The notes beneath the pieces were generated by a model. The model saw nothing but the letters and a program-made list of their open reading frames with translations. It was not told the origin of the DNA and made no database searches. The translations under genes were made by a program, and so were the position numbers. A DNA stretch of 64,000 bases from Paracoccus yibinensis (GTDB taxonomy: Bacteria; Pseudomonadota; Alphaproteobacteria; Rhodobacterales; Rhodobacteraceae), in assembly GCF_030846195.1 (NCBI RefSeq), contig NZ_JAVCWH010000001.1:434001-498000 (forward strand). Direction: 5' to 3'. Shown piece by piece: positions 45,139 through 64,000 of this stretch; positions within the stretch are counted from its first letter, which is position 1; each line of letters starts with the position of its first letter.

Positions 45139-45163
45139 GCCGGCAACCAATCCCCGCCCGGCC

Positions 45164-46123: not shown

Positions 46124-46189
46124 GAGACTGTCCTTCAAAACGGGCGTTGTGCAGACAGGGACAACGCGAAACGACAAGGGCTGATAGGC

Positions 46190-48630: not shown

Positions 48631-49076
48631 TCGCCCTCCGCGGTTCATCGGTCCTTGCGACCAGCCATGGAACAACAGACGCTGCTGCGATGCGTTCGTT
48701 CACATAAAAGAGAGCGGCTGAAAGCTGCCGGATTCGGGCAAGTCAGCACCCCTGGGTCAGCACATGCCCTGAGATGCTCTCCGAGAAGTTCGACGGCTGA
48801 TGCCCTCACAGGAAGGAGGCAGGACAACCCCCCTCAACGGACCATCATTTAATCAATTGAAATCAATTATTTTCAGGTCGACAAAATCAAGATTTATTAT
48901 CGCAATCCTTGGACCAGAGGATTTGGAAGTGAATGCATCATATAAATCCCGCAAACAAATACTTTACCAACAGGCGAGTCTGAGTTAATAATTAAAACCA
49001 TATCCTTGATTTAGTAAATGTTGTCTCTCGTCAGGACCGCGTTCCGCGGCACCTGACCGTTCATGGGTGCCCAGGG
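48631..49076. other. Gene-free, partly AT-rich region upstream of the large paralog operon
   Basis: No convincing gene lies here. Bases 48845-49020 are, by eye, about two thirds A+T, in sharp contrast to the GC-rich surroundings. They include a direct repeat of ATCAATT (ATCAATT-GAA-ATCAATT) near 48853-48869 and TA-rich tracts such as TATAAAT and TTAATAATTAAAA. The region must hold promoters for the minus-strand DUF2382 pair and the plus-strand operon, but I cannot place a specific -35/-10 pair. An AT-rich leader can also mark the edge of acquired DNA. Confidence 0.5.
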
Positions 49077-51314
49077 ATGCTATCGCTGACTGATGGATTC
49101 TCGATCGAGGGGGTCGATTTCTTTCGCGACGACGAAGCGAAGGAGGTCTTCTATTACCTTCCCAAGTCCGTTGAACTTGCCCGCCACCCGGACGGGTCGC
49201 CCCAGTTCCAGTTCGTTCTGTATCAGGCCGGGCTGCCGATCGAGGGCAAGCAGCAGGGCGGCGGCTTCATCGTGATGACCACGATGCTGACAGCCCCCGC
49301 CGACGTGATCGGTCCCAGGGCCATGGACAGGGCGCAGCAGATCCTGCGGTCCGAGGCGCCTTCGCCCGGCGCGCCCATCCCCACGCCCAAGATACGGCCG
49401 GTCAATTTCACCAGCGGCACGGCCGCCCTGCGGATCGCGCGCGGCACGGGCGGGATGCTGATCAACAATATCGACCTGGGCAAGCCATCGCTGTTTGGCA
49501 GCAATACCGTGTCCATCGTGGCCGACATGCCCTTCGAGGGTGCCCAGATCTTTGCCGACGTGCTGCGCCAGGGCGGCGACATCGCGGCGGTGGAATACAA
49601 CCTGGAATTCGAGGTGCGCCTGCCCGCCGTCGTGATCGAGGCGCATATCAGTTCGTCCCGCGTGCGCAATGTCGTGGCGACCTATACCACCCAGCAGGTC
49701 GTGGACGAGGATTTCTGGGGCGGCGACACCACCACGGAAACCCGCAAACGCACCGGCTATTCCGAATTCCTGCGCGAGAATTCCCTGGTGGAACTGGAAA
49801 TCCGCGCCGGATCGGCCGAGGTCGAACTGGACGACGACATGATATCGGACCTGCGCGACTTCGCCCTGGGCGCGATGGACAAGTTCATCAACGAACAATG
49901 GCTGAACGTGGGCGGCATCCTGACGACGGAACAGCTGCAAAGCGAATGGCTGGAATTCATCAACGAGGATTTCGAAAAGAACTTCGATCTGGTCCTGACC
50001 CAGTCCGACGTCATCCTGCGGCAATACAACCCAAGCGCGACGATCAACCCGACCTTCATCACCGCCGATGTCAACGACTACCTGATCATCGTCGATACCA
50101 TCGCCCATCCCTTCTTCCAGCGGCTGGAGGTCGATGTCTCGACCAGCTTCGATTTCGAACGGTTCGAGGATTACGTCCATTCGATCGTCGTGGACCTGAT
50201 CTATGACAGCCCCGACAACACCGGGCGACGCATCCAGAAATCCGAAAGCTTCATCTTCACCAAGGACGACAACCAGCGGAAGAAATTCATCACCGCCAAG
50301 GGCCGCAGCAACGAATACCAGGTCATCGCCGAGGTGCATTACCGCGACGGCCCTGTCCTGAAGCAACGGCTGCTGAACGCGACGTCGATCGCGCCGGCAC
50401 AGGTCATCGCCGTGGCCAACCCGGGCGAGATCAACGTGACCTTTACCGCCCCCGCCATCGGCTTTGACGGCGATCTGCAATCCATCGACATCGAACTGGC
50501 CTATGAGGATCGCCGCAACAACGTCCTGCCGTTCACGGAACAGCACAGCCTGACCAAGGACAGCCCGCAGGTCCAGATCAAGAAGCCCGTCTATTCGCCC
50601 GAGGTCAGGCCCTTCCGCTATCGCGTCACCCATGTCTTTCCGACGCAGAAGATCTCGACCCCCTGGCTGGAAGCGCCCGCAGGCACGACGAACATCAAGG
50701 TATCCACCCCGTTCGAGGATGAACTGCGACTGGACGTGGTGCCTTCGGCAGACTGGAACGAACTCAGCGGCATCCTGGTGTCGCTGACCTATGACGACCC
50801 CGAAAACGACGTTCGCAGCCAGCAGTCGCTGTTCTTCGCCCCCGACGAGGTGGGCAAGATCAAGACCTTCATCGCGCCCCTGAAGGATCCGGCGAAGCGG
50901 ACCGTATCGGTGGCGGAAACGCATCTGTTCAAGTCCGGCGCGGCGCGCACCCTGCCCGCCCGCTCCATCGACGCAACCGGCGTCCCGGCGGTCGTGGGCA
51001 ACGCGCCGGGCGGCGTTTACCGGCTGACCGTTTCGGGCGAGGATCTGGCCTTCGGGACCGAGGTGCGGCGGGCCATGGTGACGCTGCGCTATGACGATCC
51101 CGCCAACGGGGTGTCGGACACGCATGGGGTGATCCTGCGCGACGCGGACGACACCTCGGTCTGGACGGTTGCCTTGGCGGATCCGGCCCGGCTGGATTAC
51201 ACCTATCGCGTCGATTACGTCCTGGCCTCGGGTGAACGGATCGACGGACAGGACCAGACCGACACATTCACCAACCCGGAAGGCTGGCTGATCCTGGACC
51301 CGCCGGCACGGTGA
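49077..51314 (+). CDS. Unrecognised paralog A of large repeat-protein cluster (745 aa)
   Basis: First gene of the cluster, a 745-residue protein I do not recognise. It has no signal peptide or membrane segment. The N-terminal part (1-270) shows features shared with its neighbours: FYYLPKS, GGGFIVM near residue 61, then FEGAQIFADVL near 152 and VEYNLEFEVRLPAVVIEA. A middle segment contains AHPFFQRLEVDV. Four repeats of about 98 residues follow, marked by YDSPDN (376), YEDRRNN (476), YDDPEN (572) and YDDPANG (672), each with a later DP plus an aromatic strand (ADPARLDYTYRVDYV). The start has only a weak ribosome site (AGGG next to ATG) but MLSL matches the paralogs' N termini. Cytoplasmic location is inferred; function unknown. 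Confidence 0.8.
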   Translation: MLSLTDGFSIEGVDFFRDDEAKEVFYYLPKSVELARHPDGSPQFQFVLYQAGLPIEGKQQGGGFIVMTTMLTAPADVIGPRAMDRAQQILRSEAPSPGAPIPTPKIRPVNFTSGTAALRIARGTGGMLINNIDLGKPSLFGSNTVSIVADMPFEGAQIFADVLRQGGDIAAVEYNLEFEVRLPAVVIEAHISSSRVRNVVATYTTQQVVDEDFWGGDTTTETRKRTGYSEFLRENSLVELEIRAGSAEVELDDDMISDLRDFALGAMDKFINEQWLNVGGILTTEQLQSEWLEFINEDFEKNFDLVLTQSDVILRQYNPSATINPTFITADVNDYLIIVDTIAHPFFQRLEVDVSTSFDFERFEDYVHSIVVDLIYDSPDNTGRRIQKSESFIFTKDDNQRKKFITAKGRSNEYQVIAEVHYRDGPVLKQRLLNATSIAPAQVIAVANPGEINVTFTAPAIGFDGDLQSIDIELAYEDRRNNVLPFTEQHSLTKDSPQVQIKKPVYSPEVRPFRYRVTHVFPTQKISTPWLEAPAGTTNIKVSTPFEDELRLDVVPSADWNELSGILVSLTYDDPENDVRSQQSLFFAPDEVGKIKTFIAPLKDPAKRTVSVAETHLFKSGAARTLPARSIDATGVPAVVGNAPGGVYRLTVSGEDLAFGTEVRRAMVTLRYDDPANGVSDTHGVILRDADDTSVWTVALADPARLDYTYRVDYVLASGERIDGQDQTDTFTNPEGWLILDPPAR

Positions 51315-51330
51315 TGCAGGGGATCGCGCG

Positions 51331-53625
51331 ATGCTGTCCTTTGCCCCGCCCATCCGGCTGATCGAGGGCCACCCCGTCTTTGCCGACCACGGGGACCCGG
51401 GCCTTTTCCACGTCCTGCCGGCGGCGCCCCTGCTGGCCGATGCACCTGACGGCGGCCCGGCCTTCGGCCTGATGCGGTATCTGGGCGACGGGGCGGGCGG
51501 CGCGGCCCTGGCGGGCGGGTTCCTGTCGCTGACCACGGAACTGCCGGTGCCCCAGGCCGCGCAGGACCGGATCGCGCAGCGCCTGTCCGACGAACTGGGC
51601 CGGGCCGTTCGCCTGTCCCTGCCGCTGTTCGACGACGGTCAGGTGGAACTGACCCTGCTGGGCCAGACCCAGGGCGGGGCCGCCACGCCCGGCACCCCGT
51701 TCGAGGTGACGGTCCTGGGCAGCACCCGTCCGTCCATGGCGGGCGTGAACACCGCCAGCTTCCAGGTCGCCCTGAACGCCACGGCCGCCGCCTTCATCGA
51801 GGCGGGAGTGGGCGATCCGACCCTGCCCGCGCTTGTGGTCTATCGCATGGCGCTGTCGGGGCTGCACCCGGCCTATCGCGTCAAGGTTTCGGGCGACCTG
51901 TCGCGGCTGGAACAGGAACTGGACGCGCGGTTTCGCGCAAATGTGTGGTATGTCCGGGCCGATATCGCGGCCCAGACCCGAGATGCGCTTTCGACCGCAG
52001 GCGTGCGCGTCGATACCGTCATCATGGACGGCCAGGCCACCGACGACGCGGCGGCGGCCGAACGCGCCGTGCTGGACTGGATCACCGAGACCTATTTCGA
52101 TCCCGCCTATGGCACGACGCCCCCGCCCGCGCCCACCCTGGTCGATTCCCTTGCCGGGACGGTGACGGATCTGTTCGACACGCTGATGCCCGGCGCGTCC
52201 TTCAAGCTGAAGACGCGGCGCGAGAACGATGTCCGCCAGATCGACGCGGTGCTGAACCGCACCACCGTCCGCCGCCGCGACCTGGTGTTCCAGGCAACGC
52301 TTGGCCATGAACTGCATGCCCTGCGCGTGGATCAGGACGGCAACGAACGCCCCGGCTGGCCCGCCCTGCGCGACCGTCTGATCGGCGGGGTCAACATCGC
52401 ATCCATCCCCCGCCGGGAAGTGAGCGTCGGGGTCATGGACCGCTTCGCCAGCGACGGCCTGTTCGCAGTCGAGGTGGATCTGGCCCTGCCCGATCCCGAT
52501 GGCGGGGGCGATCTGCACCCGGAAACCTTCATCTTCCACGATGCGGCCGACCGACAGCTTTATGCGGTCAACCTGCTGGATGCGGCGTCCGGATTGCTGA
52601 CAGATCCCTATCGCTATCGGCTGCGCTGCCATTACGACCCCGCATCGGATTTCGGGCAACGCCCGTCCGAAACCGGCCCCTGGATCGAAGGCCGCGCGGG
52701 GGAATTGATCGTGGATCCGCGCGTCGATGGTCCCTACCGCCTGCGCCAGCCCGTCATCGGCGTGGCACCCGGCTTTCCCTTTGCGCAATTCCCGCAGGTC
52801 ACTGTCGATCTGCGCCGCATGGAGGGGACCGAGGAAACGCAGCGCGCCATGCTGGCCCTGACCGCCGACCGACCGGAAGCCGAATGGACATTCCGCGGCC
52901 ATGGCGCGGACCCGCAGGATTTCGAATACCGCCTGCAATTCGAACGCCCCATGGCCCAGGGCGGGCCGGTGGCCCTGGACTGGCGCCGGGAACCGGGCCT
53001 GCGCGTGACCCTGCCCGACCCCTTGCCGCACCGCCGCCGCGCGACCTTCTTTGCGACCCTGCCCTGGTCCGAGGTGACGATCGCCTTTCTGGAAATCCGC
53101 TATGACGACCCGGCCAACGGGTTGCGCATCGACGAACGCATCAACCTGTCCCCGGACCAGCCGCTGATCGAACGGGATTATGCCATCGCGGACCCGCAGG
53201 TCGCGGCCCTGACCTATCGCCTGACCGCGCTGATGACCGGGCGCGGCGTCGTGCAGGGCGACTGGCGCGAGACGACCGACACCACCATCGCCATTGGCCG
53301 CGAACTGGTCGAGATGCGCGCGGTCCGGTTCCGCGCCCTTGGCCTGCCCCTGTCCCTGCACCGGCTTGCCGAATTGCGGATCGAGGCGCAGGCGCTTGGG
53401 TCCGACGGCACCCTGCATCATCAGCACCGCATCGCCGTCGCGGGGGATCAGACGGGCACCGATCTTGGCACCTGGACCTTTCCGCGCTTCGCCCCCGAGG
53501 TGGCGCGTCTGCGCATCAAGGCCGACTGGCGCGATACCAACGGCTTTCCGAATGGCAGCCCCTGGACCGACTGGCCCCGCGACCTGGTCCTGATCCGCGT
53601 GCCGCAGATGACATTCCAGGCCTAG
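51331..53625 (+). CDS. Unrecognised paralog B of large repeat-protein cluster (764 aa)
   Basis: Second paralog, 764 residues, 16 bases after A. The opening MLSFAPPIRLIEGHPVFADH, FHVLPAAP and GGFLSLTTEL near residue 61 align by eye with the other members. ASFQVALNATAAAFIEAGVG and LVVYRMALSGLHPAYRVKVS match the second N-terminal block. Four repeats of about 100 residues begin near 388, 491, 591 and 690; the third has the clear LEIRYDDPANG and YAIADPQVAALTYRL motifs, while the others are more diverged. No signal peptide, membrane segment or known catalytic motif is seen. It is translated from a start preceded by AGGGGA. Function unknown. Confidence 0.8.
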   Translation: MLSFAPPIRLIEGHPVFADHGDPGLFHVLPAAPLLADAPDGGPAFGLMRYLGDGAGGAALAGGFLSLTTELPVPQAAQDRIAQRLSDELGRAVRLSLPLFDDGQVELTLLGQTQGGAATPGTPFEVTVLGSTRPSMAGVNTASFQVALNATAAAFIEAGVGDPTLPALVVYRMALSGLHPAYRVKVSGDLSRLEQELDARFRANVWYVRADIAAQTRDALSTAGVRVDTVIMDGQATDDAAAAERAVLDWITETYFDPAYGTTPPPAPTLVDSLAGTVTDLFDTLMPGASFKLKTRRENDVRQIDAVLNRTTVRRRDLVFQATLGHELHALRVDQDGNERPGWPALRDRLIGGVNIASIPRREVSVGVMDRFASDGLFAVEVDLALPDPDGGGDLHPETFIFHDAADRQLYAVNLLDAASGLLTDPYRYRLRCHYDPASDFGQRPSETGPWIEGRAGELIVDPRVDGPYRLRQPVIGVAPGFPFAQFPQVTVDLRRMEGTEETQRAMLALTADRPEAEWTFRGHGADPQDFEYRLQFERPMAQGGPVALDWRREPGLRVTLPDPLPHRRRATFFATLPWSEVTIAFLEIRYDDPANGLRIDERINLSPDQPLIERDYAIADPQVAALTYRLTALMTGRGVVQGDWRETTDTTIAIGRELVEMRAVRFRALGLPLSLHRLAELRIEAQALGSDGTLHHQHRIAVAGDQTGTDLGTWTFPRFAPEVARLRIKADWRDTNGFPNGSPWTDWPRDLVLIRVPQMTFQA

Positions 53626-53634
53626 GGGGAACCG

Positions 53635-56007
53635 ATGCTCAGCTTTGAAACCCCGCATATCGAGGCAGACGGGGTGATCCTGTTTCCCGACCACGAGGAT
53701 CCGCTGCTGTGGTATTACAGCGCCGGGATGCCGCAGATGGCCCTTGGCCCCCAGGGACGTCCCATGTTCGACCTGTGGGTCTATACCGAGGCATTGGTCC
53801 ACGATTTCCTGACCGGCACCCGCATCCCGGACGAGATGGGCGGTGGCTTCCTGACCCTTGGCGTGAACTGCCGCCGCACCGACCGGGAACTGCGCGAGGC
53901 GCGCAAGGCCATCGCGCGCGCCACCGACGCCGACGAGGACGCCATCAAGCTGTCCCCCATTCCTTATACACAGGGCAAAGCCAGCGTCATCGCGCTGGAC
54001 AACACGACGCTGGGCACCGTGACGCCCGATCCGGCCGGGGCCGATCCCAATGCCGGGCGCCCGCGCTTTGTCACCGCGATCCTGGGCGCCGGGGTGCCTG
54101 CCCTGCTCGGGGATCTGCAATCCATCTTCTCGCTGTCCCTGTCCGACGACGGGGCGGCCTTCATGGCAGGCATGTTCGACGCGACCTCGACCCCCGTGGG
54201 CGTGGTCTATGAACTGGAATTCGAAGGCCTGTCGCCCGCCGTCAACGTCACCGTCAGGGCCGACATGGACAAGCTGCGCCGCCATTTCGGCGGCGGGCTG
54301 CAAGGCCAGGTGCAGTGGTTCAAGGCCGACATCCAGGCCGCCGTGGACCATCTGGTGCAGACGAATGCGGTGGAAATCGACAGCTCCACCTTCATCGACA
54401 GCGACGCCGCGCGAGAGGCCGAGCAAAGGGCCATTGCCCTGTTCAAGGAAGACCTGATCCAGCAGATGTTCCGCCCCTCGCTGCCCCAGCCGCCCAAACC
54501 CGCGCCGGGCCAGGGCCTGGGAGAGGCCATCGCCGCCCTGGCGCGCACCGGCAGCGGGGCCGCATCCGGGGGGGCCGCAGGCGCGGCCACGGCGGCGACC
54601 GGCGGATCATTGGGCCTGACGCTGAAATTCGAACAGGAGACCGCGCATCTGTCAGGCACCTTCAGTTACAACTCGCGGATGCCGGTCAGCCGCACCGACG
54701 CGCCGCAGGCATTCCTGCAAACCCTGATCGACCCTGACGATCACGCGGAACACACCACCCTCATCAACCTGGGCACCGCCTCCGCCTTCTTCGACCGGGT
54801 CGAGGCCATCGTGTCCCTGCCCGAGGAGGAAACCTTCGCCGAAATGAACCTGCGCCAGGCGGTCGTCAGCATGGCCTATGGCGAAGGCGACCCGTCGCGT
54901 CCGCCGGATGTCAAGCCGCCGCTGGTCTGCCTGCCGGGGGGCGAACGCACCCGCGTGCTGGCTTTCCATCGCAACGGACGGCCCAGCATGGCCGTCACCT
55001 ATGACATCACCTATGAATTCGACGATCCGGTGAATGCCACGGTGGATCGCAGCCGTTATGTCACGCCGCGCACCACCTCCACCACCCGCGCGGTGATGGT
55101 CGATCCGCGCGGCGACTTCGGCTATCGCCGCCTGATCCTGCGCCCGGGCCGCATTCCCGCCAACGTGGCCGAAATCAGCCTGACTGCGGACTTCGCCACC
55201 CCTTCGGGCGCCTTCACCGCCCGCCGGACCTTCGGCCTGCACGGTCCCTTCGACCGCACCATCGCCGAGATCGCCCCCAACGGCGCCGAATGGTCCATCC
55301 GAACCGAGGAGAAAGGCCCCGGCACCTTCCGCCTGACGCCCACCTATGTCTTTGCGGACGACAGCGGCGTCTGGACGGCGCCGCAGCAGATCGCCGAATC
55401 CGCCTTCTTCACCCTGGACGCGCCGTTCCGCGCGCAGCGGCAGTTGATCATCCAGCCGAATGTGCTGTCCCCCTCGGTCGAAGGCATCGACGTCGAGGTC
55501 GAATACGACGACGCAACGGCAGGCTATCGCCGTCGCTTCCGCGACACGCTGGTCCCGCCCTTCCAGGCGCTGACGCTGCAATGGTCGATCCTGGACGAGG
55601 ATCGCCGCACCGTCCGCATCCGATCGACCGTGCGCGAAGGCGGCATCGTCTCGCAGGGGGAATGGATTGACTGGGATGAAACCACCCATGTTGTCGGATC
55701 GGACGCCGCGCGGCCCGATGCCCTGACGGTGCGCCTGATCGGCGGGGATCTGGCATCCACGGGCCTGGACGCCGTGCTGGTCGAGGTGCGCGCACCGGAC
55801 GAAACAGGCGCCCCCCGCACGACCGAACTGTTCTTCGGTCCGGGCGATCCCATCACCGCCACGGTCGATCTGATCCGCCGTCCCGGCCAACCCCTGACCT
55901 ATGATTTCCGCACCCAGACCTTCCGCAGCACGGGCGAGGCCGCCATCAGCCCCTGGCAGACCCGCACCGACGCCCTGCAACTGATCATCTCGATCCGAAC
56001 CCTTTGA
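53635..56007 (+). CDS. Unrecognised paralog C of large repeat-protein cluster (790 aa)
   Basis: Third paralog, 790 residues, nine bases after B with a good ribosome site (AGGGGGA). The N terminus MLSFETPHIEADGVILFPDH and GGGFLTLGV near residue 68 match the family. IFSLSLSDDGAAFMAGMFDA and VVYELEFEGLSPAVNVTVRA form the second block, nearly the same as in D. A Gly/Ala-rich linker (GSGAASGGAAGAATAATGG) at about 304-322 separates it from a beta-rich middle segment. Four repeats follow near 414, 518, 623 and 719, including DVEVEYDDATAG. The linker suggests that the N-terminal and repeat parts are separate domains. Function unknown. Confidence 0.8.
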   Translation: MLSFETPHIEADGVILFPDHEDPLLWYYSAGMPQMALGPQGRPMFDLWVYTEALVHDFLTGTRIPDEMGGGFLTLGVNCRRTDRELREARKAIARATDADEDAIKLSPIPYTQGKASVIALDNTTLGTVTPDPAGADPNAGRPRFVTAILGAGVPALLGDLQSIFSLSLSDDGAAFMAGMFDATSTPVGVVYELEFEGLSPAVNVTVRADMDKLRRHFGGGLQGQVQWFKADIQAAVDHLVQTNAVEIDSSTFIDSDAAREAEQRAIALFKEDLIQQMFRPSLPQPPKPAPGQGLGEAIAALARTGSGAASGGAAGAATAATGGSLGLTLKFEQETAHLSGTFSYNSRMPVSRTDAPQAFLQTLIDPDDHAEHTTLINLGTASAFFDRVEAIVSLPEEETFAEMNLRQAVVSMAYGEGDPSRPPDVKPPLVCLPGGERTRVLAFHRNGRPSMAVTYDITYEFDDPVNATVDRSRYVTPRTTSTTRAVMVDPRGDFGYRRLILRPGRIPANVAEISLTADFATPSGAFTARRTFGLHGPFDRTIAEIAPNGAEWSIRTEEKGPGTFRLTPTYVFADDSGVWTAPQQIAESAFFTLDAPFRAQRQLIIQPNVLSPSVEGIDVEVEYDDATAGYRRRFRDTLVPPFQALTLQWSILDEDRRTVRIRSTVREGGIVSQGEWIDWDETTHVVGSDAARPDALTVRLIGGDLASTGLDAVLVEVRAPDETGAPRTTELFFGPGDPITATVDLIRRPGQPLTYDFRTQTFRSTGEAAISPWQTRTDALQLIISIRTL

Positions 56008-56019
56008 AGGGGAACGACC

Positions 56020-58473
56020 ATGCTGGACCTGAATACCCGTTTCGAGCTTCTGGGGGTCACGCTCTATCGCGACGCGGACCAGCCCGAAGTGTTTTTCTTC
56101 CTGCCCCAGAACCCGGTGATCGCGCGGGACCGGGCCGGGCTGATGTTCGACCTGATGCTGTATGAAAAGGGCGGCCAGGCCGACGACCTGCAGACCGGCG
56201 GCTTCCTGACGCTGGCGATCTCGACGGGGCTTGGGGCGCTGGAACAGCCGCTGCTGCGGGAACTGCGCCGCCAGTTCGGGGACAATGCGCGGCTGGTGTC
56301 CATTCCCTTTACGGAAGGGTCTGTCCGGCTGGCGGGGCTGGACACGGGCGTGGCGCCCATCAATCCCGACGGCACCGGCGGCCCGGCCAGCGATCCCGGC
56401 CCCACCGGCATCCGGCTGGTGGAAAAGGTCTTCGGCGCCACCACGCCAAACCTGGACGGCGACAACCGCGCGGTCTTTTCGCTGCAACTGTCCCAGGACG
56501 GCGCGGCCTTCTTTGCCGACCTGATGGAACAGGGCCGGTCCGCCCGCCCGCTGATCGCCATCTATGACCTGAAATACACCGGGTTGATGGAGGTCGAGAG
56601 CCTGCGGATCGAGATCGACTATTCCCGCGTCTATGACTTCCTGCGCACCCGCATCGGCTTCAACGCCATCGTCGTGGCAGGCGAGATCGACAACATCGTC
56701 GAAGAACTGCGCGACAACCAGGCGATCAAGATCGACGACACCGTGCGCAGCCTGGAACTCTCCACGCCCGAGGCGATGAAGGAACGTCGGGACCGGATCG
56801 ACGCCCTGGTCAAGGAACTGGCGACCGGCGCCTTCTTCGCACCGTCCCTGAAGCTGGGCGATCCGTCGGTCGAGGAAAGCAGTGTCTTCGCCGCCCCGAC
56901 GGGCGAGGTCGCGACCGGCCTGTTCCGCCAAGGCCTTCCCGCAGCCATCGGGCAAGCCATGGGCCAGGTGGTGACGACCCGCGAGATGGCGACCGCAAAC
57001 GACATCAACACGCCCCCGCCCGAACCGGGCGAAGGCCAGCCTGCCCCTGCCGCCAACACCCAGGTCGCCGCGCAATCCTCGGCCTTGGGCCATCCGACGG
57101 CGACCTTCACCATGCGGCATCTCCAACAGCGCGAATTGCGCAAGGTCACCTATGACCTGTCGCGCACCACCGCGATGCAGCGCAGCACCGGGCCGCAGAA
57201 CCCGCTGCTGTTCATGGGATCGGAACGCGAAATCCGCGCCCGCATCCACAAGATCAGCCTGAACCATCCCTTCTTCGCCCGGCTGCGCATCGACGTGGAC
57301 GCGGGCGGCACCGACTTCGCGGCCGAAGGCATTCGCGCCATGACCGTCAACCTGCGCTATGGCCGCCGCCCGGACGGGCTGCCCAAGGAAACCGCCGACG
57401 TGATCCTGGACAGCGCCGATGACCGCGCCAGCTTCGTCTTTGCCCGCGATCAGGGCGGGGACATGGGCTATGAATACCAGTTGACGCTGCATTACCTGCC
57501 GGGCTTCGGCCTGGGCGACACGCGCCAGACCGTCACCGGACCCTGGACCCGGTCCGAGGCGCGGCAGCTGTCCGTCCACCCCTCGATGCTGGCCCGCCGC
57601 CAGCCGATCACGCTGACGCTGCCCCGCGTGGTGCCACCCGACCTGTCGGAAGTGCGCGCGACGGTCGCCTATGTCGATCCCGAAGGGGTCATCGACGACC
57701 GTCGCAGCTTCGTGCTGACGCCAGGCGGCGCACCCGCCATCGCGAATGTCCGCTTCGCCGACACGAACGACGCGGCGCGCATCACGGCCGAGGCGATCTT
57801 TGCGGATGGCAGCACCAAGCCCCTGGCCGAGGAGATGCGCCCCGACCCCACAGGCGCCAAACCCCTGGATCTGGTCGTCCTGCCCGTTCCGCAGCGGCCC
57901 GCCGCGCAGTTTTCCGTCATGCTGTCCGATCCGCTGGACGAACTCCGCTCGGTTCTGGTCGATTACGAGGTCAGGCAGGCAGGCCAACTGATCGCCAGCG
58001 CCGCCGTCGAAGTCACTGAACCCCTGCGCGCGGTGCCCGTTACCGTGGTGCTGCCCGCCCCGACGCCCCTGCCCGAGGTGCGCCTGCGCGAACGCCGCAT
58101 CTTCGACCGCGGCGGCATCGAAACCCTGAATTTCCAGCCCCTGACCGACGGCCTTGCCATCGTCGGCGTTCCGGCGGCCGACGTGATGGAGGTGACGCTG
58201 CGATACCTTGGCCCGCCGATGGCCGCGCTGGGCGTCCTGGGGATCCTGGTCAGCCTGCGTTACCGGACCCCCGACGACGACCCCGAATTCCGCCAGACCG
58301 CCAGCCTGTTCGTCGAGGCGGCGGAACCCGCCCGCTGGGTGGTGCGGCTGAAGGACCGCGCGGCGCGCAGCTTTTCCTGGCAGGCCACGCTGATGCTTCA
58401 GACCGGCCAGCAGCGCGCCCTGCCCGAAGTCACCACCGAAAACACCCTCGTCCTTTTGCAGATCACCGCCTGA
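56020..58473 (+). CDS. Unrecognised paralog D of large repeat-protein cluster (817 aa)
   Basis: Fourth and longest paralog, 817 residues, 12 bases after C with AAGGGGA ahead. The N-terminal block has MLDLNTRFELLGVTLYRD, VFFFLPQNP and GGFLTLAIS near residue 60. VFSLQLSQDGAAFFADLMEQ and AIYDLKYTGLMEVESLRIEI form the second block. A Pro-rich linker (PPPEPGEGQPAPAANT) lies near 329-346. NHPFFARLRIDVDAG matches AHPFFQRLEVDV of A. Four repeats start near 444 (LRYGRRP), 548 (VAYVDPEG), 646 (VDYEVRQAG) and 745 (LRYRTPDDD). There is no signal peptide or enzyme motif. Function unknown. Confidence 0.8.
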   Translation: MLDLNTRFELLGVTLYRDADQPEVFFFLPQNPVIARDRAGLMFDLMLYEKGGQADDLQTGGFLTLAISTGLGALEQPLLRELRRQFGDNARLVSIPFTEGSVRLAGLDTGVAPINPDGTGGPASDPGPTGIRLVEKVFGATTPNLDGDNRAVFSLQLSQDGAAFFADLMEQGRSARPLIAIYDLKYTGLMEVESLRIEIDYSRVYDFLRTRIGFNAIVVAGEIDNIVEELRDNQAIKIDDTVRSLELSTPEAMKERRDRIDALVKELATGAFFAPSLKLGDPSVEESSVFAAPTGEVATGLFRQGLPAAIGQAMGQVVTTREMATANDINTPPPEPGEGQPAPAANTQVAAQSSALGHPTATFTMRHLQQRELRKVTYDLSRTTAMQRSTGPQNPLLFMGSEREIRARIHKISLNHPFFARLRIDVDAGGTDFAAEGIRAMTVNLRYGRRPDGLPKETADVILDSADDRASFVFARDQGGDMGYEYQLTLHYLPGFGLGDTRQTVTGPWTRSEARQLSVHPSMLARRQPITLTLPRVVPPDLSEVRATVAYVDPEGVIDDRRSFVLTPGGAPAIANVRFADTNDAARITAEAIFADGSTKPLAEEMRPDPTGAKPLDLVVLPVPQRPAAQFSVMLSDPLDELRSVLVDYEVRQAGQLIASAAVEVTEPLRAVPVTVVLPAPTPLPEVRLRERRIFDRGGIETLNFQPLTDGLAIVGVPAADVMEVTLRYLGPPMAALGVLGILVSLRYRTPDDDPEFRQTASLFVEAAEPARWVVRLKDRAARSFSWQATLMLQTGQQRALPEVTTENTLVLLQITA

Positions 58474-58489
58474 GACACGGAGCGCGATC

Positions 58490-60091
58490 ATGAGTTTCGA
58501 AACCGACAAGCTGCGCTACATGTTCACCGCCGAACCTGCGGGCGGCAGCGGCATTTTCGGCAGTGGCGGGGGCGACGGCACCGCGCAGCCCGTCGTGCCC
58601 ATCCATCTGGCCAACGAAGTCGAACCCCTGCTGATGGGTCCGGCCTATTTCGCGAAACTGAAGGCCGCCATCGACGCCCTGCCCGCCAGCGGCAACCCGA
58701 TCCTGTGGCTGGCGGGCTGGTGGTTCACGCCGCTGTTCTCGCTGGATACAATGACCGGCGGGCCGGAAATGACCGCCCTGCTGAAGGCCAAGGCGCGGGC
58801 CGGTGTGGACGTGCGCGTCCTGGGATGGGTCCTGGCGCCCGAGATGATGTCGTCAAGCATCGTCCAGTCCAACGCGGCCGAGGCGTTCCGCACCAGCTAT
58901 GGCACCATGCGCTTCATCAAGGAACTGCGCACCGAGCCCGCGCTTGCGAACAAGGTCGCCTGCAACACGCTGTCCCACCCGGCGGGCGCGGTCCACACCA
59001 AGCTGGCCCTTGTGGGCAACGACGACCAGATGACGGTCTTCACCGGCGGGCTTGATTGCGTCAACGACCGCCACGATCCCGTCTGGCGCGACGTGCAGTT
59101 GCGCCTGACCGGTCCCGCCGCGCAGCCCGCCTTCGACTTCTGGCGCGAGATGTGGAACGAGGTGCAGTCCCGCCCCGTCAAGCCGCTGTCCTTTTCCGTG
59201 ACGCTTGGTGGCAAGGTCCATGCGATCAGCCTGGACAACCGCACCGCCGCCGCGACCGCCATCCCGGCGCGCAGCGTGGGCCGTCCGTCGGCCGGGCGCA
59301 TCCACGCGCAATCGCTGCGCACCGTCCCGCAGTTCAACTTTCCCTCGCTGTTCGGGTTCTCGCCCATCCCGATGAACGACACATGCACCTTCGCGCCGTC
59401 GGGTGTCTTCGACGTGGATCGCGGCTGGCGGGCGGCCATCGGGGGGGCCGAGACCTATTACTATGTCGAGGATCAGATGCTGTCGTCGCAGCCCCTGTGC
59501 GACGCGCTGAATGCGCGGTTGCGGGCGGACGACGATTTCCGCGTGGTGCTGGTCACAGGGCGGTTCGACCCGAACGATCCGCCCAGCGACATCGGATCCT
59601 GGACACGGGCACGGGCGATCAACTTCCACCTGATGCGCGGATTGACGGCGGCGCAGAAGGCGCGCGTGGCGATCTTCAACCATTCCTCCAAGGTGGTGCA
59701 TTGCAAGATCGCCATCGCCGACGACAAATGGGGCTTCGTCGGTTCGCCCAACTTCTCGGTCCGGTCGCAGTTCACCGATTTCGAACACGGCTTTGCCTTC
59801 ATGGACGAAGCCGAGGCCGCCGTCCCCGCCTTCCGCCGCCAGTTGTGGGACAGCATCTTCGGCGCCCCCGAACCCGACATGACGGCGGCGCTGAACCGAT
59901 GGTTCGCGATCCCCGAAGGCGGCACCCAGGGGACGCTGCAACGCATCGCCACCCCCGTCGCCGTCCCGACCCTGGGCACCGTCGAACGCCTGGCTGCTGA
60001 CGCCCTGTTCGAGGTGGACAGCCGCCAAAGCTGGGGGTCCGACCTGATCCTGATGCTGACCGGCAATATCGGCCTGCCGGTGACGTCATGA
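58490..60091 (+). CDS. Phospholipase D superfamily protein
   Basis: A 533-residue protein with two PLD half-sites. The C-terminal motif is canonical: HCKIAIADDKWGFVGSPNFS, with His404, Lys406, Asp411 and Gly-Ser 418-419. The N-terminal motif HTKLALVGNDDQMTVFTGG has His169 and Lys171 but three extra residues before the Asp (178 or 179), then the usual six residues to Gly-Gly. Both halves needed for a single active site are therefore present, one slightly altered. There is no signal peptide. Superfamily members hydrolyse phospholipids, cut nucleic acids or transfer phosphatidyl groups, and sequence alone does not decide. It lies between paralogs D and F and overlaps F by 4 bases, so it is an integral part of the cluster. 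Confidence 0.85.
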   Translation: MSFETDKLRYMFTAEPAGGSGIFGSGGGDGTAQPVVPIHLANEVEPLLMGPAYFAKLKAAIDALPASGNPILWLAGWWFTPLFSLDTMTGGPEMTALLKAKARAGVDVRVLGWVLAPEMMSSSIVQSNAAEAFRTSYGTMRFIKELRTEPALANKVACNTLSHPAGAVHTKLALVGNDDQMTVFTGGLDCVNDRHDPVWRDVQLRLTGPAAQPAFDFWREMWNEVQSRPVKPLSFSVTLGGKVHAISLDNRTAAATAIPARSVGRPSAGRIHAQSLRTVPQFNFPSLFGFSPIPMNDTCTFAPSGVFDVDRGWRAAIGGAETYYYVEDQMLSSQPLCDALNARLRADDDFRVVLVTGRFDPNDPPSDIGSWTRARAINFHLMRGLTAAQKARVAIFNHSSKVVHCKIAIADDKWGFVGSPNFSVRSQFTDFEHGFAFMDEAEAAVPAFRRQLWDSIFGAPEPDMTAALNRWFAIPEGGTQGTLQRIATPVAVPTLGTVERLAADALFEVDSRQSWGSDLILMLTGNIGLPVTS

Positions 60092-60774
60092 TCGCCCTGG
60101 GCACCATGCGGACGATGCGCGGGCAGGCCAACCTGCTGGTCTTTGGCGACGATGCGGATCCCTATGTCCATCATGTCCTGCCGCTGGACCTGATCCCCGA
60201 CGGTCCGCCGTCGCTGACCGTCATGGGGCGGGGACCAAGGGACCGGGCTGAAGGCATCCTGGGCGGCTTCTGGATCCTGCCCCTGCGGGGGGATGCGCCG
60301 CCCGCCGACATGGCGGCGATCACCGCGGGGCTGGCGCAACCCGACGGCCCCGCCCCCCGCCTGCTGATGGCCGAAGCCGATCTGGACCTGCAAGCCACCC
60401 TGAGCGACGACCCCGAGACCGGCGCCACGATCCATGCCGCCTCCTGGCGCGGCGGCACCATCGCCCTGAACGGCGAGGTGCCGGGGGGCGAGCCGGGCGC
60501 GGCGATGGCCCGTGCCTGGGATCGCCGCCTGCCGGACGGGGTGGCGCGGATCACCCTGACACTGCGCGGCATGGCCCCGCCCGAGGCCACGACATCCCTG
60601 GACGAAACCCTGCGCCTGTCGGGCGGCGACGGGCGACTGTCGCTGGAACGCTCCTCCAGCAGCACGACCACCCGCCGCCAGAACGCAGCCACCCTTTCCA
60701 TCAGGCGTGATCAGCCTCTGCGCCTGCCCCCCGGCAGCCGCGACGTGATCTGGGCCGGCTTCGATCGAACCTGA
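60088..60774 (+). CDS. Short paralog F: N-terminal part of the cluster family only (228 aa)
   Basis: A 228-residue protein translated from an ATGA overlap with the PLD gene. Its first 90 residues resemble the N termini of the large paralogs, especially B: VFGDDADPYVHHVLPLD compared with VFADHGDPGLFHVLP, then GGFWILPLRG near residue 58. The later part (GVARITLTLRGMAPPEATTS) looks like one isolated beta strand pair followed by a Ser/Thr/Arg-rich stretch. It lacks the four-repeat array. It may be an adaptor or capping version of the family. Function unknown. Confidence 0.7.
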   Translation: MIALGTMRTMRGQANLLVFGDDADPYVHHVLPLDLIPDGPPSLTVMGRGPRDRAEGILGGFWILPLRGDAPPADMAAITAGLAQPDGPAPRLLMAEADLDLQATLSDDPETGATIHAASWRGGTIALNGEVPGGEPGAAMARAWDRRLPDGVARITLTLRGMAPPEATTSLDETLRLSGGDGRLSLERSSSSTTTRRQNAATLSIRRDQPLRLPPGSRDVIWAGFDRT

Positions 60775-60787
60775 AAGGACAGACGAC

Positions 60788-63058
60788 ATGCTTTCGCTTT
60801 ACGGCAGCTTTACCGTCCCCGGCGTCCCCGACGTGGTCATCTATCGCGACGACGAAAACGCGCGCAAATTCTATATGGTCGCGGCCAAGCCCCGCATCCT
60901 GCGCAGCGATCCGCGCGATCCCGCCAGTCGTCCGATGATCGACCTGATCGCCTATACCCGCGACCATTCCCAGCCGATCCCGGCAACCGAGGATGTCGAG
61001 CGCGGCCACCTGCAGATGACCGTGGGGCTGGAGGTTTCGCAGGCGGACCAGAACCGCATCCGTGCCTTTCTGCGCCAGCGGCTTGCCGACGAACTGGGCC
61101 GGGGCTTCCGCTTCCTGGGCATCATCCTGCGGCCGGGGGAACCGGAACTGGGCTATGCGCCCCAGTTCATCGGCGGCACTGCCGTCGCCACGACCTTCGG
61201 CGGCGACCTGCAGATCGCGGCCCAGGGCACCTGCCCAATCCTGTCCACCGGCATCAACAGCGCCAGCTTTTCCTATGAACTGACGCAAAGCGGGGCGCGC
61301 TTCATCCGGCAGACGATGGAACAGGGCGCGCTGCCGATCCAGGTCCGCTATGAAAAGCTGATGATGATCGCGCGCATCCCCGCCGTGACCATCCGCATCA
61401 ACGGCGACCGCCGCGACTTTCTGACCGAGGCCCGCGAGCACGCCTTCATGCGGCCGTTCCTGACGGTTCAGGGCCTGCTGATCCATCGGCTTGTCTATTA
61501 CGCGCCGCCGACCCTTTCCAGCTTCCGCGACACCCACCAGACCCTGACGATCGAGATCGACGACGGCGATTTTCGTGACGCCGACCCGTCCGAGGATCTG
61601 ACCCAGGAACTGGAAAAGATGGCGCTGACCATCCTGCAGAACAACATCCTGCCCGGATTTTTCGAACCCGCCATTCCGGCGCAGGACGAAACCGAGGACG
61701 AGAAGGGCCGCGGATACTGGTTCCGCGAAACGACCGAGGTCACGGGCAGGGTCGATGTCACCATCAGCCGCCGCGACGTGGTCCAGATCGAACACGGCGC
61801 CAACAACATCCTGGGAACCGAACTGACCCAGGCCGAGGCGGCGGCGGCCATCCGCTATGCCAGCCTGTCCCAGCCCAACATTCCGGTGATGACGCTGACG
61901 GTCGTGCCCAACATCAATTTCGAGGTCGATCCGATCCTTCTGGTCAGCGTCTTCATCGACTATGACGAATTCGACGAGATCAAGAACCAGCGGGTCCGGG
62001 TGCAAAAGCAGATCCGGCTCAGCCGCGATGACGGCCCGCAGCAATTCCGCTTCGACCTGGCGATGGGACCGGACCGGGTGGCCAAGGCCAACTATCGCTA
62101 TCGCACGGTGGTTCATTTCACCGGGTCCATGGTGACGGCCGAACATCCCCCCGCCGGGGGATGGAATGCAGGCACGGGCGAGGTCCTGGTCATCAGTTAT
62201 GCCCAGTTGGGCCAGGTCAAGGTCGATCTGCTGCTGGCGCCCATGCCGCCCGAGGTCGCTTCCGTGGATGTGACGCTGACCTATCCCGATCCCACGGCGC
62301 GCGGCGCGGTCAAGACCGTGACCCTGTCCCCCGCCAGCCCCACGGGCAGTTGGCTGGTCTCGGTTCCCGCCGGGGGGGCGATCCGGCCCTATCGCGTGGA
62401 CCGCCTTTACCGCATGACCGACGGCACCACCCTGACCCTTCCGCCCGAGGAAAACGCCGCCGAGACGCTGACCATTACCAGCCCGTTCGAGGCGCGGGTG
62501 CCGACCACCTTCATTGCACGCGGTAATTTCCAGACCGAAGTGACGGCGATCTTCGTCACGGCCACCTATGCCGACCCGGCCCATGACCTGACCGAACGGG
62601 CCACGTTGGAACTGAACGATAGGATTCGCACCCTTACATGGACCGCACGCCAGGTCGATCGCGACCTGACGCGCTTCGACTATCAGGTCAAGGTTCTGCG
62701 TCACGACGGGTCCGAATCCACGACCGACCACAGCGGCAACCTGGGCGAGACGATCACAGTCGGACCCAGCGGGACCGGCTCGGTCGAGGTGATCGTTGAT
62801 ACAGCACTGGTCGATTGGGCTCGCTTTGCCCGCGTCATGGTGACGCTGGAATACGAGGATCCGGCCCACAACATATCCCTGCGTAAGCCGCTGCTGTTTT
62901 CCGATATGGGACCTATGGTCCAGACCTGGTCCTGGCTGATCGCGGACCCCGCAAGGCGCGGCTTCCGCTATACGGTGCGCCGTGTGGGGCGCAACGCCGC
63001 CGACGACATCATCGAGCCGCCGGTCGATACCGACGATCCCTTTGTCGTGCTGCGGTAA
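60788..63058 (+). CDS. Unrecognised paralog G of large repeat-protein cluster (756 aa)
   Basis: Fifth large paralog, 756 residues, 13 bases after F. It opens MLSLYGSFTVPGVPDVVIYR and carries HLQMTVGLEV where others have GGF. NSASFSYELTQSGARFIRQT and IQVRYEKLMMIARIPAVTIR form the second block. A middle beta-rich part includes RVDVTISRRDVVQIE. Four repeats start near 390 (FIDYDEFDE), 497 (LTYPDPT), 593 (ATYADPAHD) and 687 (LEYEDPAHN), the last with LIADPARRGFRYTV. It lacks a signal peptide. It is the most diverged in the N-terminal part but clearly the same design as A-D. Function unknown. Confidence 0.8.
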   Translation: MLSLYGSFTVPGVPDVVIYRDDENARKFYMVAAKPRILRSDPRDPASRPMIDLIAYTRDHSQPIPATEDVERGHLQMTVGLEVSQADQNRIRAFLRQRLADELGRGFRFLGIILRPGEPELGYAPQFIGGTAVATTFGGDLQIAAQGTCPILSTGINSASFSYELTQSGARFIRQTMEQGALPIQVRYEKLMMIARIPAVTIRINGDRRDFLTEAREHAFMRPFLTVQGLLIHRLVYYAPPTLSSFRDTHQTLTIEIDDGDFRDADPSEDLTQELEKMALTILQNNILPGFFEPAIPAQDETEDEKGRGYWFRETTEVTGRVDVTISRRDVVQIEHGANNILGTELTQAEAAAAIRYASLSQPNIPVMTLTVVPNINFEVDPILLVSVFIDYDEFDEIKNQRVRVQKQIRLSRDDGPQQFRFDLAMGPDRVAKANYRYRTVVHFTGSMVTAEHPPAGGWNAGTGEVLVISYAQLGQVKVDLLLAPMPPEVASVDVTLTYPDPTARGAVKTVTLSPASPTGSWLVSVPAGGAIRPYRVDRLYRMTDGTTLTLPPEENAAETLTITSPFEARVPTTFIARGNFQTEVTAIFVTATYADPAHDLTERATLELNDRIRTLTWTARQVDRDLTRFDYQVKVLRHDGSESTTDHSGNLGETITVGPSGTGSVEVIVDTALVDWARFARVMVTLEYEDPAHNISLRKPLLFSDMGPMVQTWSWLIADPARRGFRYTVRRVGRNAADDIIEPPVDTDDPFVVLR

Positions 63059-63068
63059 GGGGGCGGCC

Positions 63069-64000
63069 ATGGCAAACGCTCTGCTCAGCGTCACGCAGGA
63101 AACGGCCCAGCCGGTCCAGGTCAGCCCCCGCCCGCGCCGCGCGGCCGCCGACATGGGGATGGTCATGCGCGCCGCGCATATGGCGATGATCGCCCCGCCC
63201 GTGTTCCTGGCAGCCAATGAACCCTCGCAGGACGGCCGCGCCTTTCCAACCGTCGATGGACGCCACCTTGCCCGCCCCCTGCTGGCGCTGGGGCAGCGGG
63301 GCGGAACCTTTCCCGGCCCCGACGTGGCCTTCCTGAAGGAAATCGACGGTTCGACCTATCTGCACATCGCCCTGCGCCAGACCCTGCCGCCGGGCACCCC
63401 CGAAGGCACCGAACTTCTGGGTTCCCTGTCCCGCCCGCCCCGCATCCAGTGGGCGGGCGGGGAATTCGTGCTGCCCGACCCCACGCCCGTTGACGACAGC
63501 GACGGCGTGGGCGGGCAGATGCGCATTCTGGCGCCCCTGAGTCCCGATCTGGTGGCGCAACTGGTCCAAGCCATGACCGACCCGGCGGCGGGCTGCGTGC
63601 TGGTCGCCGAATATTCGGCCTTCTACCGGCTGCGCAGCGATGTCCCTGCGGACCCGCCGGACCGGCCCCGACCGCCTTGGCACAGGCCGCGCCCCTGGCC
63701 GCGCCACCCGTTCGACCCGCATGAGTTGCCCATGCACCGGCCGCAGACGCTGGACATTGGCGAATTGCACCGGCTGGACGTGACGATCCCGGCACATGCC
63801 ATGGTCGTGGCCCCTGACGCCGCAGGCCCGCCCTCCCTTCAGACCGCCGCCCTTGTCAGCAACGCCGCGCGCATCTCGCCCGAGCTGCTGGAGCATTGGA
63901 AGGGGCGGCAAGTCATCGACATCCCCGATTTCTGGATCGGCCCCGCGCAGACAGAGGAGCGGGACGTCACAGCCAGCTTCGTCCGGCAGGTGCCATTCTT
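63069..64000 (+). CDS. Unrecognised protein H, cut by window edge
   Basis: An open frame begins at 63069 behind AAGGGGGCGGCC, ten bases after G, and runs past the window end (310 codons visible). The visible part starts MANALLSVTQETAQPVQVSP and has a hydrophobic Met/Ala-rich patch (AAHMAMIAPPVFLAAN) near residue 40. A Pro/Trp/His/Arg-rich stretch (PRPPWHRPRPWPRHPFDPHE) follows around residues 210-230. I see no clear match to the N-terminal block or repeats of A-G. Co-direction and spacing make it part of the same unit. The upstream bias of Arg and Pro suggests a linker or a nucleic-acid or membrane-surface contact, but that is a guess. Confidence 0.7.
   Translation, partial: MANALLSVTQETAQPVQVSPRPRRAAADMGMVMRAAHMAMIAPPVFLAANEPSQDGRAFPTVDGRHLARPLLALGQRGGTFPGPDVAFLKEIDGSTYLHIALRQTLPPGTPEGTELLGSLSRPPRIQWAGGEFVLPDPTPVDDSDGVGGQMRILAPLSPDLVAQLVQAMTDPAAGCVLVAEYSAFYRLRSDVPADPPDRPRPPWHRPRPWPRHPFDPHELPMHRPQTLDIGELHRLDVTIPAHAMVVAPDAAGPPSLQTAALVSNAARISPELLEHWKGRQVIDIPDFWIGPAQTEERDVTASFVRQVPF

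What the first reader, a model, noticed from the sequence alone, without database searches (positions are those of the whole stretch)
49077..64000. Operon of five giant paralogs built around a PLD enzyme: candidate undescribed system
Eight consecutive plus-strand genes with gaps of 9-16 bases or 4-base overlaps form one apparent transcription unit that continues past the window. Five encode paralogs of 745, 764, 790, 817 and 756 residues with the same domain plan, one is a short N-terminal-only relative, and one is a PLD-superfamily enzyme. I know no named system with this composition. Retention of several diverged paralogs side by side suggests subunits of one hetero-oligomer rather than redundant copies, with the PLD protein as the only recognisable enzyme.
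Basis: partly seen in the sequence, partly recalled or inferred. Interest (0 to 1): 0.92.

Follow-up and report, generated by a model that had tools for sequence, protein, structure and literature searches.

The report
Giant-paralog operon with prenylation enzymes
A bacterial operon makes several related giant proteins of an unstudied family together with proteases and with enzymes that resemble those modifying aromatic compounds; relatives are scattered through distant bacterial phyla, which points to an unknown multi-part cellular machine.

Summary
In detail: A-B-C-D-PLD-E-F-G are real, tightly packed genes without a meaningful Pfam, PHROGs or NCBIfam hit except PLD. The operon runs on past the window: prenylcyclase/DMATS-like fusion, Tat-type tyrosinase, trypsin; beside it lies an EAD1-trypsin/EAD1/nSTAND module. 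On a Paracoccus plasmid all 14 genes are colinear. G carries the family's N-domain too. Relatives are rare but reach five phyla, with two or more paralogs side by side at 15 of 18 distant loci. A tree puts A/F and C in cross-phylum subunit types older than the clusters, which favours a hetero-oligomer. PLD is not the centre: in the genus it is full-length only in the three genomes with the intact operon, and it is absent from 18 distant loci. The recurring enzyme is a DMATS-like aromatic prenyltransferase (12 of 18), with varying proteases and oxidases. The N-domain found no good PDB match. My best reading, a sensor- and protease-gated assembly doing aromatic prenylation/oxidation, probably in conflict or defence, is inference beyond gene content.

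The parts
49077..51314 (+). A, large paralog 745 aa, subunit type I
   Evidence: tree; AF2 model (pLDDT 80.3, pTM 0.43): N-domain about 1-276, then tandem Ig/FnIII-like beta-sandwich domains within 349-745
51331..53625 (+). B, large paralog 764 aa, type unresolved in the tree
53635..56007 (+). C, large paralog 790 aa, subunit type II
56020..58473 (+). D, large paralog 817 aa, type unresolved; residues 1-288 are the shared N-domain
   Evidence: N-domain model (pLDDT 82.8, pTM 0.67); no PDB match at E 0.001 or at Z 5
58490..60091 (+). PLD-superfamily protein 533 aa; accessory, seen in Paracoccus clusters only
   Evidence: PF13091 E 1.3e-9; one canonical HxKx4D at 404-411 and a variant HTKLALVGND at 169; distribution
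60088..60774 (+). E, short relative, N-domain only, 228 aa
   Evidence: 22% identity to a Nitrotoga short gene that matches the family profile at 6e-9; 38% identical to SMMA_5_TC, the least conserved of the genes compared
60788..63058 (+). F, large paralog 756 aa, type I subgroup with Sphaerisporangium (long-branch caution)
63069..64000 (+). G, 750 aa, cut by the window edge (ends at 65321 in extended numbering); diverged relative with the N-domain inside
   Evidence: G-family profile matches the N-domain profile at E 5e-7
48830..49076 (.). A+T-rich intergenic stretch before the operon, probable promoter region
   Evidence: sequence; overlapping promoter-like matches at 48963-48992, 3 matches found in the region against 1.7 expected, so weak

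Best explanation
A mobile multi-gene system of an undescribed kind. SHOWN by sequence: a family of large proteins (A, B, C, D, F; diverged members G and, more weakly, E) with a shared N-domain and, in A's model, tandem Ig-like domains; old subunit types; frequent neighbourhood with a DMATS-like aromatic prenyltransferase; varying proteases and oxidases; in Paracoccus, linkage to an EAD1-trypsin/EAD1/nSTAND module. INFERRED: the paralogs assemble into a hetero-oligomer that carries or organises the enzymes; a sensor (nSTAND/EAD1 here, perhaps TIR-WD40 in Anaerolineae) with a protease switches it on; the enzymes then prenylate, cyclise and oxidise an aromatic group, free or on a protein, giving a reactive or membrane-active product; the role is conflict or defence. 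Likelihood: a coherent multi-subunit system about 0.85; aromatic prenylation as its core chemistry about 0.6; a gated defence system about 0.4.
For: Colinear 14-gene run on plasmid pNSM5TCa; the same module beside the operon in G000 and beside a decayed copy in G335, where A to the tyrosinase is deleted but TRY, MEM, EADT, EADN and NTP remain. Purifying selection on the large paralogs. Old subunit types. DMATS-like gene in 12 of 18 distant loci (seven trained that profile, four more are close relatives of those, one, L062, is neither), and next to paralogs in G815 and G363 with a later profile. DMATS identity: profile of 7 hits CymD at E 0.0034, Trp_DMAT in 4 of 7 members, best E 0.0077, TIGR03429 E 0.03 in two members. 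PT N-half: prenylcyclase 6ij1 E 3.5e-6 (SMMA copy), MstE E 2.6e-6 (window copy), D-x-D-S-T motif kept in both. Proteases inside operons: trypsin here, and EAD1-trypsin in the linked module, both with triad-like motifs; caspase in Nitrospira; papain-like family with invariant Q-x5-C, H and N. TIR-WD40 gene divergent from the Anaerolineae cluster. Patchy presence: 4 of 289 in the class (one of them, G160, only at E 7.6e-4), 5 of 101 in the genus, 3 of 398 in the phylum, own genome counted each time.
Against: No direct evidence of a complex, of enzyme activity or of defence. No homolog of the Paracoccus EAD or NTPase genes in the 18 distant loci; signalling genes were noticed only in Paracoccus and Anaerolineae, and flanks beyond 10 kb were read for six genomes only. 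No protease was recognised at 10 of 18 distant loci, whose other genes were not all scanned. The DMATS identity of the Paracoccus PT C-half is weak: the q7 profile finds nothing in the window's own genome; some searches were negative; hmmsearch did not lift it above 837 decoy ORFs, and only hhalign (E 9.3e-4, probability 22.5%) favours it. All DMATS family scores lie below curated cut-offs. DMATS-like orphans exist without paralogs (G167, G252). PADLOC gave nothing for A and D, the only large paralogs given to it. Aminicenantes homologs begin with signal-peptide-like stretches, unlike the window's proteins.
Confidence: 0.4

Rival explanations
1. A specialised-metabolite pathway for a prenylated aromatic or meroterpenoid, in which the giant proteins are scaffold or compartment subunits and the proteases and STAND genes are regulation or chance neighbours.
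For: DMATS-like gene in 12 of 18 loci; prenylcyclase half related to MstE and 6ij1; tyrosinase; a P450 fused to a DyP-like C-terminus upstream in Shinella and Mesorhizobium and a P450 gene at the same place in Pararhizobium.
Against: I noticed no further recurring biosynthetic or transport gene, though not all neighbours were scanned; one to five paralogs plus G per locus is a lot of scaffold; caspase and EAD1 linkage is unexpected for a pathway.
Confidence: 0.3
2. An exported or surface assembly (fibre or layer) of Ig-repeat subunits that the enzymes decorate or cross-link, for example through tyrosine oxidation.
For: Tandem Ig/FnIII-like domains whose VIA rows include pilins and adhesins; Tat-type signal on the tyrosinase in two orthologs; Aminicenantes homologs begin with signal-peptide-like stretches.
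Against: A-G of the window start without a visible signal peptide (sequence); no secretion family among the operon proteins scanned; the fold matches are generic.
Confidence: 0.15
3. A PLD-centred nuclease or phospholipase system.
For: PLD lies inside the operon and its full-length form occurs, among 101 genomes of the genus, in exactly the three with the intact operon; weak similarity to DrmC of DISARM.
Against: No PLD homolog in any of 18 distant loci at E 1e-3; only one canonical HKD motif.
Confidence: 0.04

Closest known systems
NTP-dependent conflict systems with EADs (Kaur et al. 2020, PMC7159879; passages read only)
   Same: EAD1 shared by a trypsin and a neighbouring protein, STAND-type NTPase, variable enzymes beside a constant core
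   Different: No MoxR-vWA, VMAP or GAP1/GTPase core among the 15 proteins scanned; giant Ig-repeat paralogs, prenylcyclase/DMATS-like protein and tyrosinase; the words prenyltransferase, tyrosinase, phospholipase D and PLD have 0 occurrences in that paper
DMATS/ABBA aromatic prenyltransferases (CymD)
   Same: q7 family: profile match over about 170 residues and a P-V-E-F-S region matched by TIGR03429
   Different: Very divergent, below curated cut-offs; embedded in a multi-subunit operon
MstE and other small class II prenylcyclases
   Same: N-half of PT aligns over about 200 residues and has a D-x-D-S-T motif
   Different: Joined to a second domain; the stand-alone q8 family has D-A-D-D-T-A but no PDB hit at E 1
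Complement C3 / alpha-2-macroglobulin
   Same: Most of the top Foldseek rows for A are tandem Ig-like proteins of this family
   Different: TM-scores about 0.05-0.12, so generic; no CGEQ in any of 15 proteins
Arthropod prophenoloxidase cascade (recalled; PMC4700666 seen as listing and start of abstract)
   Same: Trypsin-type proteases next to a tyrosinase
   Different: No homology test done; analogy only

Membership tests
NTP-dependent EAD conflict systems | the same EAD on an effector and on another component | tested here: met
   EAD1 PF19955 in EADT (E 2.4e-11) and EADN (E 1.4e-11)
NTP-dependent EAD conflict systems | MoxR-vWA, VMAP or GAP1/GTPase core gene | tested here: not met
   no such family among the 15 operon and flanking proteins scanned with Pfam; an nSTAND/AAA gene instead; genes elsewhere in the genome not scanned
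NTP-dependent EAD conflict systems | bias to multicellular bacteria | not tested
   the distribution searches do not address habit
DMATS/ABBA prenyltransferases (q7 family) | sequence similarity above chance | tested here: met
   weak but always the same family
DMATS/ABBA prenyltransferases (q7 family) | curated cut-off of Trp_DMAT or TIGR03429 | tested here: not met
   11.4 bits against 25, 13.6 against 163.85; hence only called DMATS-like
DMATS/ABBA prenyltransferases (q7 family) | PT-barrel fold | not tested
DMATS/ABBA prenyltransferases (Paracoccus PT C-half) | sequence similarity to the family | tested here: inconclusive
   negative; hhalign E 9.3e-4 over 249 columns but probability 22.5%; P-x-E-F-S and two K-x-Y motifs (roles recalled)
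class II prenylcyclases (PT N-half) | sequence similarity and D-x-D motif | tested here: met
tyrosinase | common central domain and paired histidine motifs | tested here: met
   PF00264 E 2.8e-38; CQHR..PWH and PHNIIH..LHHCN (copper roles recalled)
PLD superfamily | two HxKx4D motifs | tested here: not met
   one canonical motif at 404 in both orthologs tested; a variant HTK stretch at 169 in the window copy. Domain PF13091 is met, so it is a superfamily relative
complement / alpha-2-macroglobulin | thioester motif CGEQ | tested here: not met
   absent from 15 proteins
complement / alpha-2-macroglobulin | macroglobulin domain fold | tested here: inconclusive
DISARM | DrmC-like PLD together with drmA, drmB and a methyltransferase (recalled) | tested here: not met
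   DrmC score 28.8 against a cut-off of 133; no such partners among the proteins scanned

The most novel reading that the evidence does not exclude
A bacterial counterpart, in working if not in descent, of a complement/phenoloxidase cascade: a STAND/EAD1 sensor fires a trypsin relay that activates a hetero-oligomer of Ig-repeat proteins with a new N-domain fold, loaded with a prenylating and oxidising enzyme set (PT, tyrosinase), to modify and inactivate an invader or the cell itself.
Probability: 0.12. Interest if true: 0.96.

Novelty: categorically new. Interest (0 to 1): 0.82.

Why it matters
It would add a deep, cross-phylum family of giant proteins that the scanned members place outside Pfam, NCBIfam and PHROGs, with an N-domain without a clear match among solved structures, and join three fields that are normally apart: STAND/EAD/TIR conflict signalling, cascade proteases, and aromatic prenylation/oxidation chemistry. 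The intact operon makes the question directly testable.

Tried and rejected
PLD as the centre: rejected. A phage or viral origin: D has no match in the phage collection at E 0.01; one scan of viral contigs, with a two-row profile of distant relatives (not of window proteins), found 94 candidate stretches and no relative. Solved relatives of the paralogs by sequence: none at E 1. G family against PDB: one chance-level neogenin hit, E 0.92. q8 family against PDB: nothing at E 1. PLD against PDB by phmmer: nothing at E 0.001. Complement/A2M membership: very low TM-scores and no CGEQ; one q8-family member has a weak TED_complement hit, E 0.042, which I read as the shared alpha/alpha-toroid fold (recalled). 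N-domain: best VIA Z 3.8 and best Foldseek E 0.049 in PDB; a fold not listed there is not excluded. Literature: no paper on this composition turned up in searches of the open-access library; listings were seen, and only PMC7159879 and PMC8195603 were opened, by passage search. The two Streptomyces PLD hits have other neighbours as annotated, and a profile scan of them and of one Sinorhizobium stretch without annotation found no paralog; the other PLD plasmid hits were not looked at. DMATS-like orphans: in the class sample 6 of 289 genomes match the q7 profile, and the window's genome is not one of them; G167, from the same genus as G039 and G264, and G252 have no paralog in the stretches read; G019 and G151 match over 74 residues only and were not examined. 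E against the Anaerolineae short protein: no similarity, though that protein resembles a Mariprofundaceae short protein (E 3e-5 for one comparison); so the short type outside Paracoccus rests on Nitrotoga. A tree row from Aminicenantes groups only with its own kind.
Full report
CHECK. The eight genes are as described, with spacings of 16, 9, 12, 16, -4, 13 and 10 bases. A, B, C, D and F are paralogs by BLASTP; E matches weakly and only near the start. A, B, C, D, E and F have no Pfam hit at E 1 and no PHROGs or NCBIfam hit better than E 0.06. G was scanned with Pfam in two pieces without a hit; only its window part was given to PHROGs and NCBIfam. Against species G300 the five large paralogs show dN 0.04-0.09 and dS 0.35-0.54, PLD 0.03 and 0.39, G 0.19 and 0.66. 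E and PT are looser against SMMA_5_TC: 0.69 and 1.08, 0.41 and 1.01.

BEYOND THE WINDOW. The window is G000:C11:434001-498000. In extended numbering the operon continues: G to 65321, a 696-aa protein (PT) 65318-67408, a tyrosinase 67405-68919, a trypsin (TRY) 68916-69833, each overlapping the one before by 4 bases. A convergent 783-aa protein (MEM) follows, then EAD1-trypsin (EADT), an EAD1 protein (EADN) and an nSTAND/AAA protein (NTP). On plasmid pNSM5TCa of Paracoccus sp. SMMA_5_TC (same length and positions as G387:C2) the order is EAD1-trypsin, EAD1 protein, ATPase, A, B, C, D, PLD, E, F, G, PT, tyrosinase, trypsin, all on one strand, between other neighbours. G300 has the run from A to TRY and its contig ends there. 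G335 keeps a piece of A, then the end of the tyrosinase, TRY, MEM, EADT, EADN and NTP: a deletion scar that again shows the module to be linked.

DISTRIBUTION. Genomes with a match to the paralog profile at E 0.001: 4 of 289 of the class, one of them (G160) only at E 7.6e-4 over 71 positions; 5 of 101 of the genus, three with all five paralogs, one decayed (G335) and one partial (G363); 3 of 398 of the phylum; the own genome is counted in each. In the phylum of the Sphaerisporangium genome 2 of 296 and in that of the Anaerolineae bin 1 of 201, the centre counted in both. Of 72,556 plasmid records 3 match D. A scan of genome contigs with a two-row profile gave 14 loci: Rhizobium, Shinella, two Mesorhizobium, Anaerolineae, Nitrospira, Mariprofundaceae, Sphingomonadaceae, Rhodobacterales, Nitrotoga, two Sphaerisporangium, Saccharicenans and an Aminicenantes bin. 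Phyla as labelled: Pseudomonadota, Chloroflexota, Nitrospirota, Actinomycetota, Aminicenantota. The scan finds what its two peptide patterns find, so the true spread may be wider.

NEIGHBOURHOOD COUNTS (paralog profile at E 1e-10, ORFs of one region counted once, short types not counted). G039 3, G264 1, Pararhizobium 4, G680 1, L056 4, L057 4, L058 1, L059 4, L060 4, L061 4, L062 3, L063 3, L064 3, L065 3, L066 4, L067 5, L068 4, L069 2: two or more in 15 of 18. L058 and L063 are cut by contig ends. G264's one ORF resembles two types in its two parts (one search lists it with A; labels it with q4- and q6-like rows). DMATS-like gene: 12 of 18 (missing in L058, L063, L066, L067, L068, L069); seven of the 12 trained the profile, four more (L033, L056, L057, L059) are close relatives of those, L062 (E 2.5e-4) is neither. 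A later profile also finds it next to paralogs in G815 and G363. Papain-like gene: 7 of 18, one a fragment (L058). Caspase: L061. Cyclase-like q8: G039, G264, G680, L061, L065, 5 of 18. G-like gene: G039, G264, Pararhizobium, L061, L062, L064, L065, L066, L067, and the Anaerolineae, Shinella and Mesorhizobium Root552 genomes when read further, 12 of 18. PLD, tyrosinase, TRY, EAD and NTPase homologs: none of 18 by tblastn at E 1e-3. Not every flanking gene was scanned with Pfam, so other proteases or signalling genes may have been missed.

SUBUNIT TYPES. A maximum-likelihood tree of 46 rows has supported cross-phylum groups: one with A, F, q4-like and p3/p4-like rows (100/99), one with C, p8-like and q6-like rows (96/100), one of q5-like rows (100/99). 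The deepest fork is weak (54/61); B, D and p5-like rows are unresolved; the join of F with Sphaerisporangium is flagged as long branches meeting. The clusters outside Aminicenantes that have several rows in the tree carry members of more than one group, so the duplications are older than the spread of those clusters; the Aminicenantes rows group only with each other. That is what subunits of one assembly would show; it is not proof of contact.

FAMILY AND FOLD. The G-family profile aligns with the N-domain (E 5e-7, probability 92%, columns 374-535). The model of A has mean pLDDT 80.3 but pTM 0.43, so domains are credible and their packing is not. Residues 349-745 are tandem Ig/FnIII-like domains (best Z 8.0 at rmsd 24.4, single-domain likeness). 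The N-domain of D matched no PDB chain at E 0.001 or Z 5 but one viral model, Medusavirus stheno A0A7S7YF07, E 8.7e-6, probability 1.00, TM 0.34/0.26, rmsd 11.6. A new fold is possible, not shown.

CHEMISTRY. q7 proteins resemble DMATS prenyltransferases, weakly but consistently, and below curated cut-offs. The PT N-half resembles small class II cyclases. The PT C-half is DMATS-like only by a co-linear hhalign match (E 9.3e-4, probability 22.5%) and by motifs; hmmsearch did not lift it above 837 decoy ORFs, searches were negative, and the q7 profile finds nothing in the own genome. Oxidases differ by lineage: a Tat-type tyrosinase here, a P450 with DyP-like C-terminus upstream of the clusters of Shinella and Mesorhizobium, a P450 at the same place in Pararhizobium.

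MECHANISM. I infer a scaffold of Ig-repeat subunits, a sensor and protease switch, and an aromatic prenylation/oxidation output. Signalling genes (EAD1/nSTAND here; TIR-WD40 beside the Anaerolineae cluster), proteases of several families, a plasmid location, patchy presence and decay fit a conflict system; the enzyme set alone would also fit a metabolite pathway. Shown are gene content, linkage, homology and selection; assembly, switching, substrate and role are inference.

NOVELTY. I found no named system with this composition in the family libraries or in the eight literature searches listed under Tried and rejected. The closest frame, EAD conflict systems, lacks its defining core among the proteins scanned, so I do not file it there.

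Noticed in passing
window 42716-47248: Phytoene desaturase/synthase-like, polyprenyl synthase-like and isopentenyl-diphosphate isomerase-like genes (carotenoid set, by eye) lie upstream in the window genome; desaturase- and synthase-like ORFs are also there in G300, but not beside the SMMA_5_TC operon. They could supply prenyl donors or be chance neighbours.
   Followed up: no
window 47292-48675, minus strand: Two genes resembling stress-related DUF2382/YsnF-type proteins (by eye) separate the carotenoid genes from the operon; a similar ORF is beside the copies in G300 and G335.
   Followed up: no
L006:5830-8181 (-): MEM, 783 aa, hydrophobic stretches by eye, no Pfam hit, convergent with TRY; kept in decayed G335.
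   Followed up: partly
L039 (G335): Deletion scar from inside A to the end of the tyrosinase, with a transposase-like ORF (by eye) upstream.
   Followed up: yes
L068 and L069: Aminicenantes homologs, several shorter, with signal-peptide-like starts, one with TPR-like matches inside: a secreted branch of the family.
   Followed up: partly
L053:12147-15740 (-): G680 cluster has a 1197-aa protein without a significant Pfam family next to DMATS- and cyclase-like genes.
   Followed up: no
L083:6873-11126 and L088:6486-10745: 1417- and 1419-aa fusions of a P450 and a DyP-peroxidase-like C-terminus (below the curated cut-off or just at it) upstream of the clusters, an unusual double-haem architecture if real.
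   Followed up: partly
L081:6058-8904: TIR-WD40 protein, 948 aa, divergently placed about 0.2 kb or more from the G-like gene of the Anaerolineae cluster.
   Followed up: partly
L065:20265-22001 (-): In Nitrotoga an A+T-rich ORF with a P-loop-like GLWGIGKT stretch (by eye) lies about 3 kb after the cluster; not scanned.
   Followed up: no
L083:1006-4188 (-): A subtilase with RTX-type repeats lies upstream of the P450 gene in Shinella; relation to the cluster unknown.
   Followed up: no
N-domain model m071d0ec1af78 (D 1-288): Structural match to an uncharacterised Medusavirus stheno protein.
   Followed up: no
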